Source: Evansella clarkii (lineage in GTDB: Bacteria > Bacillota > Bacilli > Bacillales > Salisediminibacteriaceae). Taken from it: 64,000 bases of DNA. Position numbers and translations under genes: made by a program. Positions 44,083 to 61,410 of the stretch are shown here, in pieces. Position 1 is the stretch's first letter, and every line of letters begins with the position of its first letter. Under the pieces are notes generated by a model that saw only the letters and a list, made by a program, of their open reading frames with translations, did not search any database and was not told where the DNA came from. The stretch is from assembly GCF_002019695.1 (NCBI RefSeq), contig NZ_KV917376.1, positions 854,369-918,368 of the forward strand. Reading direction: 5' to 3'.

Positions 44083-44114
44083 AGAAAAGGAACTGCCTAT
44101 TCACAGTTCCTGCA
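44083..44114 (-). terminator. Terminator of the E2-E1/JAMM operon
   Basis: Minus-strand stem AGGAACTG/CAGTTCCT followed by TTTCTTGTTG, 9 nt past the stop. Confidence 0.78.
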
Positions 44115-44122
44115 TTCGAATA

Positions 44123-44584
44123 TTACTCCTCATATATTATATAATCTAGCTTCTTCCTCTTACTGTTCAGATAAATAAAAGTTCCGATCGATATATCATT
44201 ACGTTTTTTCCGTACAATGATAAGGAGTGGACAATCATTTTGGTAAGAGTCAGTTTCAGATATTTCAAACATAGACTTATTATCTTGTGGACTAGGAACG
44301 GGCTTTCCTAAAGGGTGTGTATGCCACTCGCCAAGATAATTTAATCCCCCATTCGACTGCTCAAATATTTCCTCTATCTTGTTATTACAATAGTCAACAT
44401 CTCTCTCAAAGTGTAACAATTGATGCTTGGCATTTGGACCAGGACCTGTATTATCTGTAATAACAAATTCATTCCCTACCCGATACCCAATTAAAACTCC
44501 TCCTGTTTCTTTAAGACCAAATAATTTTGTCTCATTGAAAAAGGAGTCCATAACTTTATAATGAATAAAGATTTTATATGACAT
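44123..44584 (-). CDS. JAMM/MPN+ isopeptidase (JAB, Cap3-like)
   Basis: 153-residue zinc metalloprotease of the prokaryotic JAB family. The catalytic set is complete: Glu26 (KETGGVLIG), His88 and His90 (EWHTHP), Ser98 and Asp101 (H-x-H-x7-S-x2-D). In ubiquitin-like systems such enzymes process the modifier's C-terminus or remove conjugates; in CBASS the equivalent is Cap3. It follows the E1 stop by 2 nt, with AGGAG inside the end of E1. Intact, unlike its E2-E1 partner. Confidence 0.92.
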   Translation of the reverse strand: MSYKIFIHYKVMDSFFNETKLFGLKETGGVLIGYRVGNEFVITDNTGPGPNAKHQLLHFERDVDYCNNKIEEIFEQSNGGLNYLGEWHTHPLGKPVPSPQDNKSMFEISETDSYQNDCPLLIIVRKKRNDISIGTFIYLNSKRKKLDYIIYEE

Positions 44585-44586
44585 TT

Positions 44587-46332
44587 TTAACTCCTATTAC
44601 AATGATCACAGTCAGGATGTTTATCTATCTTCTTCTGAACAAGCTTCATATTACCACCCTTCCCTTGACTTATCCAAAAGATATGGTCATTTTCAGTTTG
44701 TTCATAGGAATCTTTCTCTTCTGAAAGCAAAGTTTGAATACTTAATCGGGTTGTAAAATTAGCAATTATACCTGTATCTATACCACTACCAATAAATGCA
44801 GGTGTAGCACAACCGTCATCATATATTTCTTGGTTCTCATTAGGCTCAACTGACTGGAGTTCTTCATCATCACCAATATGTTCTAGGTGACAATAGTAGC
44901 AACCTGTTTCTCCTGGTACCACTCTAAAAGCTCTTCCACTCCAAGCACCTGGACCTACGAACGAATAGACAATTGGTATATTATAGTGATAAGCCATGTG
45001 GTTTAAATAGTATTCGGTATGATGGTTACCGACTGCACAAACAATTAAATCAAAATCTTTTAAGTGTTCTTGGACAATTTCCTCATCTACTCAATTTCCC
45101 CAATGTTCGTTAAAAGCTTGAACATTAGTATAAGGATTATGAGATTTTACTATTAGCTCAATTGATTGCTTCTTAGGCAGTCCCACATAGTGTATACTAG
45201 GTTCCTGTCTTATGACATTCCCGACACTTACTGAATCATTATCAATCAAAGTAAGCTTTCCCATACCAGCTTTGGCTAGATCAACAGCAACTGAAGAACC
45301 AATAGTTCCTAATCCTAGAACCAAAACATGTTGCTTACTTAAAGACTGCTAGCTTGGGCTTCTTTTAAACAGTTTATTTTGCGAAATCTCCTCCGACTTA
45401 AATACAACATAAGGAAAATGTAAAGGTCTTTTATTAGCAACCTTACTACTCTTTAAACCGACTACTAAGAATCGATTTTCATAATTTCCTTTTTGCTCAA
45501 CTTCATCGTTATATTTAATCCCTAATAGTGCGCCGATCTCAACATTAGGGTTATTTCGTATTACTTTATCCTTAAGGTGTACAGAAGCCTGCTCACATTT
45601 TACTTTTACATTTTTATGTCCTTGTTGTTCCAACCACTCTACCAATTCATTCTGGTCTTCAAAATATGGTGGAGCAGTATCTACTTCAAAACATTTACCG
45701 CTATATTCACGAGTGTTTTGCTTTAAAAGATCTAACTCTCTCTCATTTAGAAGATCTGTTCTATTACAATGGATTCTAGTCAAAAGACCTTTGAAAAGGA
45801 ACCTTTCATTTGATTCATCTGAAAGTTTTTGTATGTTAATAGTGAAGTTACCTTCTTTACCTTTCCAATCTGGTTGATAAACACTTTCTGGTGCTATTAA
45901 TACACCTTTGTGTTTTACAGAAAAAAGTGAATATTGTTTTGGCTCAGGTCCATCAATCTCCTCTGAAGGGGAAAATGAATCCGTTAAAGTTTTCTCAATC
46001 CATACTTTTGCTCTCTCTAGAATATCAATCCCTGTTTTGTTTCTATTATCTTCCCAATCTACATATAAGCACAGCTTCCCGGCATTCGGTAGAATATGCT
46101 TCTTATTCCAAAAGTCCTTATCCTGACAAAAGCATTCAGGTGGGAAATAAGGGAACCCCTCCGGATATTCTATATCAAGTTTGTAGTCTTTATTGTTAAC
46201 ATTAACTACACCTGTAAAAACTACTCTTTTCTGGTTCTCTAGTATATCACTTTGCAAAGAAAAACCCTGATTATTCAGGGCTTCTCTCTCCCAATCAAAC
46301 CTATCTTTTAACTCAATGTACCAAGGTTCCAT
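44587..46332 (-). pseudogene. E2-E1 fusion ubiquitin-like transferase with two in-frame stops
   Basis: One frame of 581 codons interrupted by TAG (codon 328, 45349-45351) and TGA (codon 414, 45091-45093). E2 domain about 1-130: YPEGFPYFPP, then HILPNAGKLCLYVDW with candidate catalytic Cys88. A linker domain covers about 135-325. E1/ThiF domain from about 337: Rossmann loop VLGLGTIGSSVAVDLAKAG, LIDNDSV, NVIRQ; zinc Cys pairs CYYC (478, 481) and CDHC (575, 578); candidate catalytic Cys508 (DDGCATPAF). E2-E1 order and length match CBASS Cap2, which attaches a C-terminus to targets through thioesters. The frame is clean between stops, so inactivation is recent, or the stops are sequencing errors or are read through. 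Confidence 0.88.
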
Positions 46333-46460
46333 TAGGCAAACTTCTTTTCATCCACTTTTGTTGGTTTATCTTTCCCTAAACCTGGTGGTGAAGGTGGTCC
46401 ATCTGGTTTACCCTTAGGTGGTTGTCCATGTGGATGTTCTGGCTTATTATCTTTTGACAT
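46332..46460 (-). CDS. 42-residue disordered protein, candidate modifier of the E2-E1 system
   Basis: First gene of the cassette. Pro, Lys, Gly and Asp make up most of it (MSKDNKPEHPHGQPPKGKPD at the start, KPTKVDEKKFA at the end); no fold is expected. TAAGGAG precedes the ATG by 8 nt. The stop overlaps the E2-E1 start (TAATG), so the two are coupled. No beta-grasp Ubl or CD-NTase is present, so this is the only candidate for the protein whose C-terminus the E1 would activate; it ends in a small residue (Ala). Role is inference. Confidence 0.68.
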   Translation of the reverse strand: MSKDNKPEHPHGQPPKGKPDGPPSPPGLGKDKPTKVDEKKFA

Positions 46461-46493
46461 TACTACCACTCCTTATAATAGTATATAAATAAT

Positions 46494-46536: not shown

Positions 46537-46564
46537 ATTTTACCAGTTATTAGTTGTTTGTCAA
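46537..46564 (-). promoter_or_regulatory. Sigma-A promoter of the E2-E1/JAMM cassette
   Basis: Minus strand -35 TTGACA (46564-46559), 16-nt spacer, -10 TAAAAT (46542-46537), 77 nt before the first ATG. Confidence 0.72.
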
Positions 46565-47096: not shown

Positions 47097-47621
47097 GTGC
47101 ATTTATTTATGACTAAATTTACAAATGATACGAAATTACTGCTCGTTCAAGGGTATAATTCGAAAATAATTTCCCAAAAAGAATATGCAAAACAGATAGG
47201 TGTAACCAGAGCACAATTCCAATATTGGTTGAAGTTATTTGAATTACATGGAGAAGACGGACTTAGAAATACCTATACAAACTGTTCTGTTAGATTTAAA
47301 CTAGACGTACTAAACTACATGGTTCAAACCGGTGCCTCATTAATGGATACCGCAGCTCTCTTTAAACTCTCCAGTTTTACAATGGTGTATGATTGGCAGA
47401 AAAAGATGGAGGTTGGTGGTATAGAAGCCCTTGAACCGATTCAAAAGGGACGTCCATCTATGAAAAATAAATTTACTAAACAATCAAAGCAAGCACCAGC
47501 TGAAGGATCAGTTGAGGCATATGAAGCGCGTATAAAACAACTGGAAATGGAAAATGAGTATTTAAAAAAGTTGAATGCCTTAGTTCAAAAAAAGTCACCA
47601 AACAAGACAAAGCGCAAGTAG
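47097..47621 (+). CDS. IS3-family transposase OrfA
   Basis: 174-residue DNA-binding subunit with two helix-turn-helix segments (ISQKEYAKQIGVTRAQFQYW and SLMDTAALFKLSSFTMVYDW) and a C-terminal leucine-zipper-like helix (VEAYEARIKQLEMENEYLKK). It ends just after the slippery site CAAAAAAAG (47586-47594). A -1 shift there would fuse it to OrfB, as in IS150. Confidence 0.92.
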   Translation: MHLFMTKFTNDTKLLLVQGYNSKIISQKEYAKQIGVTRAQFQYWLKLFELHGEDGLRNTYTNCSVRFKLDVLNYMVQTGASLMDTAALFKLSSFTMVYDWQKKMEVGGIEALEPIQKGRPSMKNKFTKQSKQAPAEGSVEAYEARIKQLEMENEYLKKLNALVQKKSPNKTKRK

Positions 47622-47647
47622 TCTATGAGTTAAGGCATAAATACCCG

Positions 47648-48457
47648 GTGAAAGCACTGGTGAAGCTCGCTGGTATTCCACGCAGCACATACTATGATTT
47701 AGTTAAGCGAATGAATCGTCCAGATCCGGATGGCGATTTGAAGGCTGAAATTAAAGCCATTTACGAAGAACATGAAGGTCGTTATGGTTACCGCCGCATT
47801 CGTGATGAGCTAGCGAATCGCGGGCAAAAAGTGAATCACAAAAAGGTTCAGCGTATCATGAAGGAACTTGGGCTAAAATGCCTGGTACGCCTGAAAAAAT
47901 ATAAATCATACAAAGGCACTGTAGGAAAAATAGCGCCGAATCATTTAGATCGTCAATTTACAGCAGATGCCCCAAATCAGAAGTGGGTAACGGATATAAC
48001 AGAGTTTAAATTATTTGGTGAGAAGCTTTATTTATCTCCTGTCTTAGATTTATTTAACGGAGAAATTATTACATATACAATCGGCTCAAGACCAACATAT
48101 TCACTTGTTTCGATGATGTTAGAGAAAGCTCTGGAGGGGCTACCAGAAGAGCATGAACTACTAATGCATTCAGACCAGGGTTGGCATTATCAGATGAAAC
48201 AGTATTGTCATGCCCTCCAAGAAAGAGGGATTATACAAAGTATGTCTCGTAAAGGGAACTGTTACGATAATTCGGTGATGGAAAACTTCTTTGGAATCAT
48301 GAAATCAGAATTTCTCTATTATAAGGAATTTGAAAGTATAGAGCATTTTAAGCTAGAACTGGAAAAATATATGAATTACTATAATACGAAACGGATGAAG
48401 GCAAAATTCAAAATGAGTCCGGTGCAATACCGGACTCATTTTGAGCAAGCAGCCTGA
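47648..48457 (+). CDS. IS3-family transposase OrfB (DDE integrase core)
   Basis: 269 residues from a GTG, but the frame is open back to the slippery site near 47590, so the main product is probably the OrfAB fusion. The catalytic triad is visible: Asp in WVTDITEFK, Asp in HSDQGWHYQ and Glu in FFGIMKSEF. An HTH_21 segment (HEGRYGYRRIRDELANRGQK) precedes the rve core. Confidence 0.94.
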   Translation: MKALVKLAGIPRSTYYDLVKRMNRPDPDGDLKAEIKAIYEEHEGRYGYRRIRDELANRGQKVNHKKVQRIMKELGLKCLVRLKKYKSYKGTVGKIAPNHLDRQFTADAPNQKWVTDITEFKLFGEKLYLSPVLDLFNGEIITYTIGSRPTYSLVSMMLEKALEGLPEEHELLMHSDQGWHYQMKQYCHALQERGIIQSMSRKGNCYDNSVMENFFGIMKSEFLYYKEFESIEHFKLELEKYMNYYNTKRMKAKFKMSPVQYRTHFEQAA

Positions 48458-56746: not shown

Positions 56747-56799
56747 TACACTACCTTTTATAATTATATATATTTTTCACTTGAAAGGTGGCATGGACA

Positions 56800-57894
56800 T
56801 TGAAACACCCAATCTTACTTTTTACCTTGCTATTCACAACTTTTTTGTTAGTAGCATGTGGAGGAAATGAACCAGAAACAAGCGCAGATAATAACTCTTC
56901 CACAATTGGCTCTGAGGAAAACAACGCGCCTGAAAACTCACAACAAACAGATGAAGAAAGCATCCCCTTGCAGGTATACACAACACTTTATCCGTTAGAA
57001 GAATTCACGAGTCGGATTGGTGGTGATTTAGTTAATGTAGTAAACATTATCCCTCCTAATTCAGATGCTCATTCTTTTGAACCTACTGCCAATCAAATGA
57101 TTGACATTGCTGAGTCTGATCTTTTTATTATTAATGGTGCTGGTTTTGAAGGATTTGCAGAACGTATTCAAGAAACTTTGGAGAACGAAAAAGCCAGAAT
57201 GGTCACGGTTTCTGAAGGTATCCAATTAATTGATGCCGATGAAAATGATATACATGATGACCACGGAGAAAATAATCATAATGAGAATGACCATAACGAA
57301 GATCATCATAATGAGGATAATCATGCAAATAATGAAATTGCTGAGGATCTCCATAACGAAGACAAACATATTGATGGCGACCCCCATATATGGATTGATC
57401 CTATTCGTTCAATACAAATAGCTGAGAATATTAAAGAAGAATTGATCGACTTAATGCCAGAAGCTGAAGAAGAATTCACAGCTAATTTTAAATCTCTTAA
57501 AGATGACTTGGAGAGCCTTGATCAACAATTTAAAGATATGCGAGAAGAAGTGACTAAAGATGTCTTTGTTGTTTCTCATGCAGCCTATGGTTATTGGGAA
57601 GATCGTTATGAGATTCACCAGGTTGCAATTTCTGGTCTTTCTCCATCTAACGAACCCTCTATTAAACAAATTGAGGAGGTTATTAATTTTGTAGAAGAAA
57701 ATGAAATTAATTTTATAGTATTCGAACAAAATATTCCTGCAAATATAGCGGAAACTGTACGCGAACAGGTGGGAGCAGATGCATTATGGCTCCATAACCT
57801 GGAGTCACTTACTAATGAGGAAATCGAGTCAGGTGAAGACTATTTCAGCCTGATGAAAAATAACATTAAAACTTTAAGAATAGCTTTGCAGTAA
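56800..57894 (+). CDS. znuA: Zinc ABC transporter substrate-binding lipoprotein
   Basis: About 364 residues of the cluster A-I metal-binding family. Lipobox LLVAC, then YTTLYPLEEFTSRIGGD and DAHSFEPTANQM, with the first His ligand. A long His/Asn/Asp-rich loop (about 140-185) precedes GDPHIWIDP, typical of ZnuA/AdcA. Later ligands are in VVSHAAYGYW and in the C-terminal lobe. The start is TTG at 56800, AAAGGTGG lying 8 nt upstream. A Zur box precedes it. No permease or ATPase genes follow, so it must work with a transporter encoded elsewhere. Confidence 0.92.
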   Translation: MKHPILLFTLLFTTFLLVACGGNEPETSADNNSSTIGSEENNAPENSQQTDEESIPLQVYTTLYPLEEFTSRIGGDLVNVVNIIPPNSDAHSFEPTANQMIDIAESDLFIINGAGFEGFAERIQETLENEKARMVTVSEGIQLIDADENDIHDDHGENNHNENDHNEDHHNEDNHANNEIAEDLHNEDKHIDGDPHIWIDPIRSIQIAENIKEELIDLMPEAEEEFTANFKSLKDDLESLDQQFKDMREEVTKDVFVVSHAAYGYWEDRYEIHQVAISGLSPSNEPSIKQIEEVINFVEENEINFIVFEQNIPANIAETVREQVGADALWLHNLESLTNEEIESGEDYFSLMKNNIKTLRIALQ

Positions 57895-57900
57895 AATATC

Positions 57901-57936
57901 GGAGTATATTATAACCTTGATAGTATACTCTTTTTT
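57901..57936 (+). terminator. Terminator of the znuA-like gene
   Basis: Stem GGAGTATATTAT/ATAGTATACTC then TTTTTT. Confidence 0.8.
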
Positions 57937-58096
57937 ATTAGAACAATAATCAACTTTTTTTAACATAAAAACTCTACGATGTCTGAACATTCCGTAAAGC
58001 TTTTTTCAAACTCTTTAAGATCGGATAACCTTATAACTTGGGCAGACAAGCTTTGCCTTTCCCTATCTCTATACCTTGCTAGGGTATTATTTAATT

Positions 58097-58133
58097 CAAA
58101 AAATCATCGTGCGTTATATGCACGATGATTTTA
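58097..58133 (-). terminator. Terminator of copZ
   Basis: Stem AAAATCATCGTGC/GCACGATGATTTT, T-rich on both sides, 32 nt past the copZ stop. Confidence 0.88.
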
Positions 58134-58164
58134 ATCTTAGTGTTAAAACTTTTTTTAAGGTCCC

Positions 58165-58374
58165 TCAAGACTTCACTTCATATCCTTGCTTTTCAATCAC
58201 TTCATTAATTTGGTTTAATGCAACCTGTTCAGAATCATATTCCACGATTACTTTTTCATTATCCAATTGTACTCTAACCGATTTTACTCCTTGTAGATTA
58301 CCTAAACTCCCCTCAATTGTGTTAACACAATGTCAACAGGACATTCCTTTTACTGTAATCGATTCCTGTTTCAT
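58165..58374 (-). pseudogene. copZ: Copper chaperone CopZ with an in-frame TGA in the metal site
   Basis: A 70-codon frame with the heavy-metal-associated fold. It starts MKQESITVKGMSC, then TGA (codon 14, 58333-58335), then HCVNTIEGSLG and on to GYEVKS, the normal 69-residue length. The metal loop is normally GMSCxHC; a GGA-to-TGA change would give this. GGGAGG precedes the ATG and a CsoR-type box lies upstream, so the rest of the gene is preserved. Nonsense mutation, readthrough or sequencing error are possible; selenocysteine is unlikely because the codon is not at a Cys position. Confidence 0.87.
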
Positions 58375-58418
58375 TAGTTATACCTCCCTCAAAATAATAC
58401 CAGTTGGCGTATATTTAT

Positions 58419-58437
58419 ATTACCCTGTACCGTATTT
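58419..58437 (-). promoter_or_regulatory. CsoR-type operator upstream of copZ
   Basis: Minus strand AAATACGGTACAGGGTAAT, very similar to the site before the copper ATPase (59236-59256): AAATAC-N4-ACAGGGTA. Confidence 0.6.
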
Positions 58438-58592
58438 CAAGGTTAACACTCGTGATTGCAGTCAGACAACTTTCGGGATAAGTTTTCTAATTCTGAAAAG
58501 TAAAGGTTATCTGCCGGTTTGTAAGTTCGTTTATGGTCAGCCTCCTACGTACCAAAAAAGAATAACAAACAACTGTGACCCTTCCAGTTATA

Positions 58593-58877
58593 CTATTTAA
58601 CCATTTTTTTCATAACATCCGTGAGCTCTTTAATAGCTACTTCCCCATCATTGTTTTTAATAGCATTTGCTACACAATGATGGGTATGGTCTTCCATAAG
58701 ACCGATAGATACCTTGTTTACTGCAGCCTGTACAGCAGCAATCTGGTTTAGAATATCCACGCAATACCGGTCATCTTCGACCATTTTATGTATACCTCTT
58801 ACCTGGCCTTCAATTCTCTTTAACCTGTTTAAGATTTGTTGCTTATTTGGCTGAACCGTGCTCCTGTTTTTTTCCAT
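58593..58877 (-). CDS. csoR: Copper-sensing repressor CsoR
   Basis: 94-residue all-helical repressor. Cu(I) ligands Cys39 (RYCVDIL), His64 and Cys68 (DHTHHC) have the spacing of CsoR. The DUF156 N-terminus ILNRLKRIEGQVRGIHKMV is typical. It releases DNA on Cu(I) binding; its sites are probably those before copZ and the CopB-type ATPase. Confidence 0.93.
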   Translation of the reverse strand: MEKNRSTVQPNKQQILNRLKRIEGQVRGIHKMVEDDRYCVDILNQIAAVQAAVNKVSIGLMEDHTHHCVANAIKNNDGEVAIKELTDVMKKMVK

Positions 58878-58989
58878 TTTTGCCCCCTCGTATATCGTTC
58901 CTTAAGAAGTTATTAATATCGTATCACATACAGTATTTTATTGGAATAAGGGGCAAAGCCTAATGCCTTAAGATATATAGAATAACTTC

Positions 58990-59118
58990 TTATCTTATCA
59001 CTCTTTCCAAATAATCAGCATTTCGGTCTTTACTTTTTAATCTAAATCCGAATGCGGTTCCACCATTTACAGCTTGCCTTTGTATTTCTGAAAAATAATT
59101 GATACCATACATCGGCAT
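58990..59118 (-). other. Possible gene fragment
   Basis: A 42-residue frame, MPMYGINYFSEIQRQAVNGG to DYLERVIR, with protein-like composition but no ribosome site. It may be the C-terminal remnant of a lost gene. I do not recognise the family. Confidence 0.3.
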
Positions 59119-59235
59119 AGTATAAAAGTATTTTATTTTCAGTACGATTTTTTGAGATATTCTAACAGTCTAAATAATTTAACAGGACTATTTTATATTT
59201 TTTTCAATTCCTGTTTATAATAATTAATACGAGGT

Positions 59236-59256
59236 AAATACCTATACAGGGTATTT
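59236..59256 (+). promoter_or_regulatory. CsoR-type operator upstream of the CopB-type ATPase
   Basis: Inverted repeat AAATACC-N7-GGTATTT around CTATACAGG, 37 nt before the ATG. The form agrees with Bacillus CsoR boxes. Confidence 0.65.
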
Positions 59257-59292
59257 TTGTATTTATGGAGTTAATATGTGGAGGTGCTATTT

Positions 59293-61410
59293 ATGAGTAA
59301 GAAATTACGCGATAATCATAAACACAAAAATGAAGATATACATCAAGAAAAAAAATATAAGCCTAACCATCAAAGGTCGGGTGAGCATAACGAACATACT
59401 CACCATCACAATTATAATAATCATGAAGAACACGACCGACATGATAATCATGACCACCATGATAAGCACGGCGGCCACCACGGCCATATCAGCGACTTTA
59501 AAAAAAGGTTTTTTGTGTCACTCATTCTTATGGTTCCAATTTTATTACTCTCTCCTATGATTCAGGGTTTTCTGGGCGTTGACTGGAGATTTGACGGAGA
59601 TATGTATCTGCTCTTCGGTATTTCAACAGTAGTATATATATACGGCGGGTGGCCATTTCTAACTGGAGTAGTTGACGAACTTAAAGCAAAAACTCCCGGA
59701 ATGATGACATTAATTGCCTTAGCTATAACAGTGGCTTATGTATACAGCACGGCAGTTGTTTTCGGGGTAGACGGACACGAGATGTACTGGGAGTTATCCA
59801 CTCTTATAGTGATCATGCTACTTGGCCACTGGATTGAAATGAAATCCATTATGGGAGCATCAAAAGCATTGGAAGAACTGGTAAAGTACATGCCTTCTGA
59901 AGCCCACCTTGTTCAGAATGATGGGAGCTTGAAAGATGTGCCGGTTTCTGATATTCAGGCAGGGCAGCATGTATTAGTCAAACCTGGTGAAAAAGTACCT
60001 GTGGATGGACAAATCATAAAAGGGAGTTCTGCAATCGATGAATCAAACCTTACCGGGGAGTCTATTCCTGTAAATAAAAATATTGATGATCAGGTGATCG
60101 GAGGCTCTGTTAATGGGGAAGGCTCTTTAACCGTTAAAGTTGAAAAAACCGGGGAAGAAAGCTATCTTTCTCAGGTTATTAATATGGTAAAAGAAGCACA
60201 GGAGTCAAAGTCCCGCACACAGAACCTCGCTAACCGGGCTGCTAAATTCCTGTTTTATGTAGCTTTACTGGCTGGTGGCACCACTTTGCTCATCTGGCTT
60301 TTGCTCGGGTTTAACGCAGACTTTGCCATTGAACGAATGGTCACCGTTATGGTTATTGCCTGTCCACATGCCCTAGGACTGGCTGCCCCCCTTGTAGTTT
60401 CTGTTTCTACTTCACTTTCTGCTCAAAAGGGGTTGCTTATAAGAAACCGTACAAATTTTGAAGAGGGAAGAAGAATAAATGCAGTAGTTTTTGATAAGAC
60501 AGGAACGTTAACAAAGGGAGAGTTCGGGATAACGAACTTTGTAGTTGAGCGGGGAGAGGAAGAGGAAATTCTTCGCATGGCAGCTTCCTTAGAATCAGAA
60601 TCAGAACATCCTATCGCAAGAGGAATAGTGGAAGCGGCTAAAAACAAAAATATCCCTGTAACCTCTCCGGAATCTTTTTCCTCAATGGCTGGAAAGGGGC
60701 TTAAAGGCAAAGTCGATGGTACTGATATTGAAATAGTCAGCCCTGGGTATATCCAGGAGAAGAATATTGACTATAATACAGATAAATATAAAGACCTTTC
60801 AAAACAAGGAAAGACAGTTGTATTTGTTTTGTTAGATGGGCAGCTTTCCGCGATGATAGCATTGGCAGACCAGGTAAGGGAAAATTCAAAAAGGGCCATT
60901 GCTGCTCTAAAAAGCAAAGGAATTGAATCAATAATGCTTACGGGGGACAATCAGCAAGTAGCAAATTGGGTAGCAGAACAGCTGGAACTGGACCAGGTAT
61001 ATGCGGAAGTCCTCCCCCACGAAAAGGCAGACAAAATTAAGGAAATACAAAAACAAGGGTTTCGAGTTGCTATGACAGGTGATGGAGTAAATGACGCCCC
61101 AGCTCTGGCAACTGCCGATTTAGGAATTGCAGTTGGAGCCGGAACGGATGTGGCTATTGAAACAGCGGATGCAATATTAGTTAAGAGTGATCCTGAAGAT
61201 GTTGTCTCTCTCTTAGAGCTCTCAAAGGCCACATACAGAAAAATGGTACAAAATCTCTGGTGGGCTACTGGATACAATATAGTGGCTATTCCTTTGGCAG
61301 CCGGAGTACTCTATACAATGGGTGTACTCCTGACTCCTGCTGCTGGAGCTGTGTTGATGTCATTAAGTACGATTATTGTAGCGATTAACGCTAAACTTTT
61401 GAGGATTTAG
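59293..61410 (+). CDS. copB: Copper-translocating P-type ATPase, CopB class
   Basis: About 705 residues. N-terminal His-rich cytosolic tail (about 1-70, e.g. EHDRHDNHDHHDKHGGHHGH) instead of HMA domains, then the P1B core: CPH in VIACPHALGLAAP, phosphorylation DKTGTLTKGE, SEHPIARG and GDGVNDAPAL. The CPH motif marks the P1B-3/CopB class, reported to move Cu(II)/Cu(I) or Ag out of the cell. ATG at 59293 follows GGAGGTG. Controlled by a CsoR-type site; a small Met/His-rich secreted protein follows. Confidence 0.94.
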   Translation: MSKKLRDNHKHKNEDIHQEKKYKPNHQRSGEHNEHTHHHNYNNHEEHDRHDNHDHHDKHGGHHGHISDFKKRFFVSLILMVPILLLSPMIQGFLGVDWRFDGDMYLLFGISTVVYIYGGWPFLTGVVDELKAKTPGMMTLIALAITVAYVYSTAVVFGVDGHEMYWELSTLIVIMLLGHWIEMKSIMGASKALEELVKYMPSEAHLVQNDGSLKDVPVSDIQAGQHVLVKPGEKVPVDGQIIKGSSAIDESNLTGESIPVNKNIDDQVIGGSVNGEGSLTVKVEKTGEESYLSQVINMVKEAQESKSRTQNLANRAAKFLFYVALLAGGTTLLIWLLLGFNADFAIERMVTVMVIACPHALGLAAPLVVSVSTSLSAQKGLLIRNRTNFEEGRRINAVVFDKTGTLTKGEFGITNFVVERGEEEEILRMAASLESESEHPIARGIVEAAKNKNIPVTSPESFSSMAGKGLKGKVDGTDIEIVSPGYIQEKNIDYNTDKYKDLSKQGKTVVFVLLDGQLSAMIALADQVRENSKRAIAALKSKGIESIMLTGDNQQVANWVAEQLELDQVYAEVLPHEKADKIKEIQKQGFRVAMTGDGVNDAPALATADLGIAVGAGTDVAIETADAILVKSDPEDVVSLLELSKATYRKMVQNLWWATGYNIVAIPLAAGVLYTMGVLLTPAAGAVLMSLSTIIVAINAKLLRI

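What the first reader, a model, noticed from the sequence alone, without database searches (positions are those of the whole stretch)
44123..46460. Minimal ubiquitin-like conjugation cassette: tiny disordered protein, E2-E1 fusion, JAMM peptidase
Seen: three tightly coupled frames on the minus strand (stop/start overlap TAATG between the first two; 2-nt gap between E1 and JAMM), one promoter, one terminator. E2 has Cys88 in GKLCLY, E1 has the ThiF nucleotide loop, two Cys pairs and Cys508, and JAMM has its full metal site. Known: CBASS Cap2/Cap3 use the same E2-E1 plus JAMM pair to attach a CD-NTase to targets; Bil/Bub systems use a beta-grasp Ubl. Neither a CD-NTase nor a Ubl is in the window. 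Inference: the 42-residue Pro/Lys/Gly protein ending in Ala is the conjugated species, a Pup-like disordered modifier used by E1/E2 chemistry, or the cassette acts on a partner elsewhere.
Basis: partly seen in the sequence, partly recalled or inferred. Interest (0 to 1): 0.92.

Follow-up and report, generated by a model that had tools for sequence, protein, structure and literature searches.

The report
Disordered proline-rich ubiquitin-like tag cassette
A decayed copy in this genome points to a scattered bacterial gene cassette in which ubiquitin-type enzymes sit beside a tiny, shapeless proline-rich protein that in relatives ends in valine-glycine, so the tag these enzymes attach may be nothing but a flexible tail.

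Summary
The layout is real: 42-aa Pro-rich ORF, E2-E1 fusion, JAMM, minus strand, tightly coupled. But E2-E1 carries two in-frame stops and the 42-mer lacks the C-terminus of its relatives, so this copy looks decayed. A search by an E1 motif gave 19 loci in five phyla; 18 have a Pro-rich tail ending Val-Gly (one Val-Gly-Gln-Gln) just before E2-E1. So do all 14 plasmid places of the family. In 43 control ThiF loci, mostly of lower GC, the one Pro-rich segment does not end so. In two loci the tail is the C-terminus of a larger protein, a ThsB-type TIR and a YegP-type DUF1508. Best reading: Cap2/Cap3-like enzymes activate a foldless Pro-rich tail by its terminal glycine, and JAMM removes it. Against: the window's nearest E2-E1 relatives are CBASS Cap2 proteins, and its place relative to the Pro-rich clade is unresolved. 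Conjugation is untested. New variant of bacterial ubiquitin-like conjugation.

The parts
46332..46460 (-). Small Pro/Gly/Lys-rich ORF, 42 aa, putative tail modifier; relatives end Val-Gly-stop, this one runs on six residues past Val36
46469..46474 (-). AAGGAG ribosome-binding-like sequence 8 nt before the ATG at 46460
   Evidence: read directly
46537..46564 (-). sigma-70-like promoter site (TTGACA-16-TAAAAT, 11 of 12); such sites are barely above the shuffled number here
44587..46332 (-). E2-E1 fusion gene, interrupted by two in-frame stops (apparent pseudogene)
45349..45351 (-). in-frame TAG between the E2/linker part and the ThiF domain
45091..45093 (-). in-frame TGA inside the ThiF domain
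44123..44584 (-). JAMM/JAB peptidase, 153 aa, full metal motif, open frame
44088..44111 (-). intrinsic-terminator-like hairpin after JAMM

Best explanation
The cassette is a decayed member, or near relative, of a family of three-gene ubiquitin-like conjugation systems. In intact copies, a short disordered Pro-rich protein ending in Val-Gly is activated at its terminal glycine by the E1 (ThiF) domain with ATP and passed to the E2 Cys of the same polypeptide. From there it is attached to an amine on a target, and the JAMM enzyme trims (Val-Gly-Gln-Gln forms) or removes it. The peptide takes the place of the beta-grasp ubiquitin of Bil/Bub and of the CD-NTase of type II CBASS; the conserved part is the tail itself, which in two loci sits on a TIR (ThsB) or YegP-type domain. 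In the window E2-E1 is interrupted twice and the tail end is lost, so this copy is probably inactive. Shown: gene order, conservation of the tail, catalytic residues, breakage. Inferred: that the peptide is disordered (from composition), that the tail is the E1 substrate, that it is conjugated, the target, and a defence role.
For: Loci found by an E1 motif: 18 of 19 have the tail just before E2-E1. Plasmid family: 14 of 14 places. Of 5795 stop-delimited segments of 40 aa or more in 31 loci (both strands), 44 are Pro-rich and 26 of these end VG; the 26 lie one per locus, upstream of E2-E1 on its strand. In 43 control ThiF loci: 2533 segments, 1 Pro-rich, 0 ending VG. VG ends 11 of 562 long ORFs in 23 of these loci. 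E2 His and Cys and E1 Cys: 19 of 19 aligned family rows. JAMM E-HxH-S-D: 29 of 31 loci; the pattern missed L038 and found L073 without the ETGG part. Tail on ThsB_TIR (1.1e-25) and DUF1508 (1e-21). A profile that includes the window row hits Cap2 7to3 (7.4e-23) and, with its E2 part, UBE2L3 (3.5e-7); Cap2 structures hold the CD-NTase C-terminus (titles). Jenson 2023 (passages, PMC10097602): cGAS C-terminal Gly/Ala is conserved only with Cap2 and Cap3, and the Gly is needed. Window 42-mer scores 27.8 bits against a model of 23 relatives; 0 of 2000 shuffles reach it.
Against: No biochemistry. The window's E2-E1 is not placed in the Pro-rich clade: nearest by path are CBASS Cap2 rows; window plus Pro-rich as one clade has p-AU 0.094, window plus G275-type CBASS 0.305; the window row is a long branch and the tool warns of long branches meeting. 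The window 42-mer lacks the Val-Gly end. The best shuffle scored 27.3, close to its 27.8, and with only its first 35 residues 4 of 2000 shuffles reach the score, so its homology rests on composition and order, not on strong identity. CBASS tails can end in Ala, so the Ala end could be native. L066 shows no tail (its E2 part is missing too). Family loci are GC-rich (median 0.59) and controls mostly are not (median 0.40); only 6 controls have GC of 0.5 or more, with 904 segments and 1 Pro-rich. Clade support is 92/92 and 94/94, not starred.
Confidence: 0.66

Rival explanations
1. The peptide is not conjugated: it is a scaffold or regulatory peptide (Pro-rich ligand) that docks on E2-E1, and the enzyme acts on a partner elsewhere in the genome.
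For: The peptides are repetitive (EHP, PPG) and compositionally biased, as docking peptides can be; no conjugate has been seen.
Against: The very C-terminus is conserved (22 of 23 end VG, the other VGQQ), which is what an E1 reads; the tail also occurs as the end of two unrelated domains; in the 14 plasmid tables I see no other gene shared by all besides E2-E1 and JAMM.
Confidence: 0.16
2. RiPP/microcin-C-like system: the ThiF domain adenylates the peptide C-terminus to make a peptide-nucleotide or other modified peptide, as MccB does with MccA (MccB chemistry recalled).
For: MccB and PaaA are among structural neighbours of the modelled E2-E1 of L058; the substrate is a short peptide.
Against: An E2 domain with invariant His and Cys and a JAMM with full metal site have no known role there; the two best matches of the model are Cap2 chains; two loci carry the tail on folded domains.
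Confidence: 0.06
3. For the window alone: a decayed type II CBASS that lost its CD-NTase and effector, the 42-mer being a chance or degenerate ORF.
For: Nearest E2-E1 relatives by tree path are CBASS Cap2 of G1148, G275, G883 (in one search L049 comes third), with a CD-NTase-type gene ending RRHG or RTHG before E2-E1; the cassette is broken.
Against: The 42-mer has its own AAGGAG and TAATG coupling and matches the peptide family better than each of 2000 shuffles, if narrowly better than the best; those CD-NTase ends are not Pro-rich; it is the most Pro-rich and most Pro/Gly/Lys-rich of 690 distinct ORFs.
Confidence: 0.17
4. Stops are read through or recoded and the cassette is active, with the Ala end native.
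For: CBASS cGAS can end in Ala; all catalytic residues are kept on both sides of the stops.
Against: Two different stop codons in one gene; the 32 family tails seen hold Val-Gly, none Ala; decay is common in the family, E2-E1 being split or cut short in L038, L062, L066 and L067.
Confidence: 0.05

Closest known systems
Type II CBASS Cap2 (E2-E1) and Cap3 (JAMM)
   Same: Same E2-E1 fusion plus separate JAMM, same catalytic residues, C-terminal-tail substrate without a ubiquitin fold (profile match to Cap2 7to3; cGAS C-terminus)
   Different: No CD-NTase or SAVED effector in the cassette; the conjugated species would be a 39-59 aa Pro-rich peptide ending Val-Gly
Iyer 2006 operon types 6b/6c (PMC1779556)
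   Same: Row 6b lists RhNGR234a and Asp., row 6c RhNGR234, for E2+E1 with JAB; S. fredii NGR234 and Arthrobacter FB24 carry loci of this family (L040, L072, L039). That these rows mean the same loci, and Asp. means FB24, is my inference
   Different: The peptide is not in the table or passages that I read; 6b is described with a polymerase-beta nucleotidyltransferase, 6c with a predicted metal-binding protein
Bil and Bub systems
   Same: E1, E2 and JAMM in one operon (Bil: PMC11354881 passages; Bub: recalled, named in PMC13373217 passages)
   Different: They use a beta-grasp Ubl (Bil; Bub: recalled); no sign of one here
Pup
   Same: Small disordered modifier (recalled)
   Different: Pup uses PafA ligase chemistry and ends GGE/GGQ (recalled); here E1/E2-type enzymes and Val-Gly

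Membership tests
Type II CBASS | CD-NTase gene in the operon | tested here: not met
   Only one SMODS match in the genome, at C1:940778-941113, about 40 kb away in another operon
Type II CBASS | Cap2-type E2-E1 with E2 Cys and E1 Cys | tested here: met
   Residues present; gene interrupted by two stops
Type II CBASS | Cap3-type JAMM | tested here: inconclusive
   JAMM motif complete, but NCBIfam Cap3 model 81.3 bits against cut-off 200
Type II CBASS | effector gene (e.g. SAVED, phospholipase) in the operon | tested here: not met
   No ORF of 130 aa or more lies between 42907 and 44123, nor between the E2-E1 start at 46332 and the IS3-like ORFs from 47097
Bil/Bub/polyUbl | beta-grasp Ubl encoded beside E1/E2 | tested here: not met
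   Only the 42-mer precedes E2; no Pfam match, 10 of 42 residues Pro; Multi_ubiq not found in the genome, but nothing rang in the controls
6A-MBL | E2-E1-JAMM in one protein, NCBIfam NF058523 above cut-off | tested here: not met
   15.5, 47 and 71.8 bits for three of the pieces against cut-off 320; JAMM is a separate gene
Pup | C-terminal GGE/GGQ | tested here: not met
   42-mer ends KKFA, relatives VG
Pup | PafA ligase | not tested
   not searched
Pro-rich -VG cassette family (named here) | Pro-rich ORF directly before E2-E1 | tested here: met
Pro-rich -VG cassette family (named here) | tail ends Val-Gly | tested here: not met
   Window runs past Val36 to KKFA; probably a frame change
Pro-rich -VG cassette family (named here) | E2-E1 inside the family's clade | tested here: inconclusive
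   p-AU 0.094 for window plus family as one clade; placement unresolved

The most novel reading that the evidence does not exclude
Bacteria have a class of protein modifier that is only a tail: a foldless Pro-rich peptide ending Val-Gly, activated and conjugated by E1/E2 chemistry and removed by JAMM. The tail is a portable conjugation tag that evolution has also grafted onto immune or stress proteins (ThsB-type TIR, YegP-type), so ubiquitin chemistry in bacteria selects for a C-terminal tail and not for the ubiquitin fold.
Probability: 0.55. Interest if true: 0.93.

Novelty: new variant of a known kind. Interest (0 to 1): 0.85.

Why it matters
It would separate ubiquitin-like conjugation from the ubiquitin fold and give a very small substrate for E1/E2 enzymes. 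It predicts a simple bench test. It would also explain why E2-E1-JAMM operons without CD-NTase or Ubl look incomplete: the modifier gene is short, Pro-rich and mostly unannotated (listed in 1 of 14 plasmid places, tables; that gene table is known to be incomplete).

Tried and rejected
Search for close relatives of the E2 part: nothing in plasmids, phages or genome contigs, 1 of 35 genomes of the family and 1 of 397 of the order, both times the window itself. Four scans of viral contigs found no relative. My first guess, that the 42-mer is the leader of a deleted Ubl, was dropped: relatives have the same kind of short ORF, complete. Raoultella, Acinetobacter and Moraxella plasmid relatives read (L041, L043, L044) look like ordinary CBASS. 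The other plasmid hits read are other ThiF loci: a cyclase pair, YcaO (43), archaeal MoeB (44), multiubiquitin (45), MBL (48), and three beside hypothetical genes (31, 32, 47). Of the 390 plasmid records I read 15 loci. Metal genes lie near some copies, in 3 of 14 plasmid tables clearly; not taken as function. The AlphaFold model of the TIR-tail protein without alignment was poor (pLDDT 40). The E2-E1 model of L058 (pLDDT 73.5) matched Cap2 7to3 first, with low global TM-score (0.42). VIA library not available.

Rows dropped before counts. Peptide model: 23 peptides chosen by hand, starts set at the first Met of the Pro-rich part; left out L051 (same as L035), L067, L074, L076, L078 (copies, near-copies or partly read), L053 and L057 (fusions), L066 (none); L082 and L083 came later, also. 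Tree: L038, L062, L066, L067 (broken or partial) and L051, L059, L060, L064, L073, L074, L076, L078 (near-copies or run-on starts) not used; L068 and L077 cut at the N-terminus to a start after the tail; one search also without L042 and L047.

Full report
What is there. On the minus strand at 46460-44123 lie a 42-aa ORF, an E2-E1 fusion and a JAMM gene, with TAATG coupling, a 2-nt gap, an AAGGAG before the first ATG and a terminator-like hairpin. Pfam names Prok-E2_B weakly (0.00019, below cut-off), ThiF (7.5e-20 and 3.5e-12) and Prok-JAB (2.6e-12). E2 Cys88, E1 Cys508, the two Cys pairs and the JAMM motif are present. The E2-E1 gene is interrupted at 45351-45349 and 45093-45091. The window's genome has an intact type II CBASS with CD-NTase, E2-E1, JAMM and HNH-SAVED at about C1:936.7-941.1 kb. 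Beyond that, one search found only a 368-aa ThiF-type frame, but it scored only 3 of 10 first-look candidates.

Relatives. The E2 part alone found nothing close. A four-row alignment of E2-E1 (window plus three plasmid relatives) gave one E1 motif pattern and 19 confirmed loci of 39 matched stretches in one genome each of 84,980 species. The small ORF played no part in that search, though the three plasmid relatives in the alignment had already been seen to carry it. By record titles the loci come from Bacteroidota, Pseudomonadota, Actinomycetota, a Patescibacteria MAG and a Planctomycetota MAG. In 18 of 19 a Pro-rich tail sits just before E2-E1; the exception, L066, has lost its E2 part. With a family member as query, 13 plasmid records with 14 places were found at 1e-20, and all 14 have the tail. 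Two of the places are on one plasmid, pNGR234a, and several are near-copies, so the counts are of loci and not of independent events.

The tail. 23 stand-alone peptides are 39-59 aa, 30-46% Pro, without Cys; 22 end VG and one VGQQ; RPVG is commonest (13 of 23). In 31 loci 44 of 5795 segments are Pro-rich; 26 end VG, one per locus, each upstream of E2-E1. The five loci outside that count are L035 and L051 (VGQQ), L053 and L057 (tail on a larger protein, less Pro) and L066. In 43 control ThiF loci none end so. The controls are a weak match in base composition: median GC 0.40 against 0.59; the six with GC of 0.5 or more hold 904 segments, 1 of them Pro-rich. The within-locus count (26 of the 44 Pro-rich segments end VG, all at one place) and two family loci of GC 0.45 and 0.41 (L052, L053) do not share that weakness. 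In L053 the tail (...PPRRREVG) ends a 213-aa ThsB_TIR protein, and in L057 (...PGDRPVG) a 162-aa DUF1508 protein. YegP homologues following capK/capS immune regulators are reported in PMC13373217 (passages), which makes the second case more interesting; that DUF1508 is the YegP family is recalled, and the link is mine.

The window's member. Its 42-mer scores above all 2000 shuffles against the family model (27.8 bits; shuffles mean 14.8, sd 3.1, maximum 27.3); with only its first 35 residues 4 of 2000 shuffles reach the score. It follows the family up to ...KPTKV, where relatives have Gly-stop, and then runs on six residues; the neighbouring frame reads Gly-stop at just this point. With the two stops in E2-E1 this suggests decay, but CBASS substrates can end in Ala, so a native Ala end is not excluded. 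Trees put 19 family rows together (92/92 and 94/94, not starred) and leave the window outside or beside, nearest to CBASS Cap2 of G1148 and G275, then G883 or L049. Neither union is rejected (p-AU 0.094 and 0.305), and the window row is a long branch with a warning attached.

Mechanism. Cap2 activates a C-terminal Gly or Ala of a protein without ubiquitin fold and forms a thioester with it; Cap3 reverses the bond (PMC10097602 passages). The family here keeps the catalytic residues and has a conserved C-terminal glycine on the neighbouring gene product. The economical reading is that the peptide is the Cap2-type substrate. Target and purpose are unknown. Neighbours in some loci are typical of defence or mobile regions: Schlafen AlbA_2, Mrr, CHAT, RES-Xre pairs, integrases and transposases. 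This was a small hand-picked sample and is weak evidence for defence.

Literature. Ten searches of the open PMC library were answered; one search listed only 20 of 15,441 papers. None of the listed titles or abstract openings, and none of the passages that I read, describes a Pro-rich peptide with E2-E1 and JAMM. Passages or sections were read of PMC1779556, PMC10097602, PMC11354881 and PMC13373217 only. Gong 2025, Ye 2026, Chambers 2024 and the Ledvina 2023 identifier that I recalled are not held, so an earlier report cannot be excluded.

Noticed in passing
L032:6683-11123 (G000 C1 about 936.7-941.1 kb): Intact type II CBASS in the same genome: DncV-like CD-NTase, E2-E1, JAMM, HNH-SAVED effector.
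   Followed up: yes
47097-48457: IS3-type transposase ORF pair directly upstream of the broken cassette.
   Followed up: partly
L053:7334-9683: ThsB-type TIR protein with Pro-rich tail ending REVG, followed by E2-E1 and JAMM.
   Followed up: partly
L057:1602-3910: DUF1508 (YegP-type) protein with Pro-rich tail ending RPVG before E2-E1.
   Followed up: partly
L063:3927-6389: Long ORF ending in a DUF2188 domain just before the Pro-rich ORF.
   Followed up: no
L077:3629-5530: Annotated ThiF start lies inside the Pro-rich ORF in another frame, so the small gene is hidden by the annotation.
   Followed up: yes
L040 and L072 (pNGR234a): Two different copies of the cassette on one plasmid.
   Followed up: partly
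window 56788-61410; L032:2695-3027; L035; L039; L077: Metal-handling genes (ZnuA, P-type ATPase, four-helix copper protein by eye, RND efflux, DUF305) near several copies.
   Followed up: no
L072, L077, L078, L083: RES-Xre toxin-antitoxin pair divergently beside the cassette.
   Followed up: no
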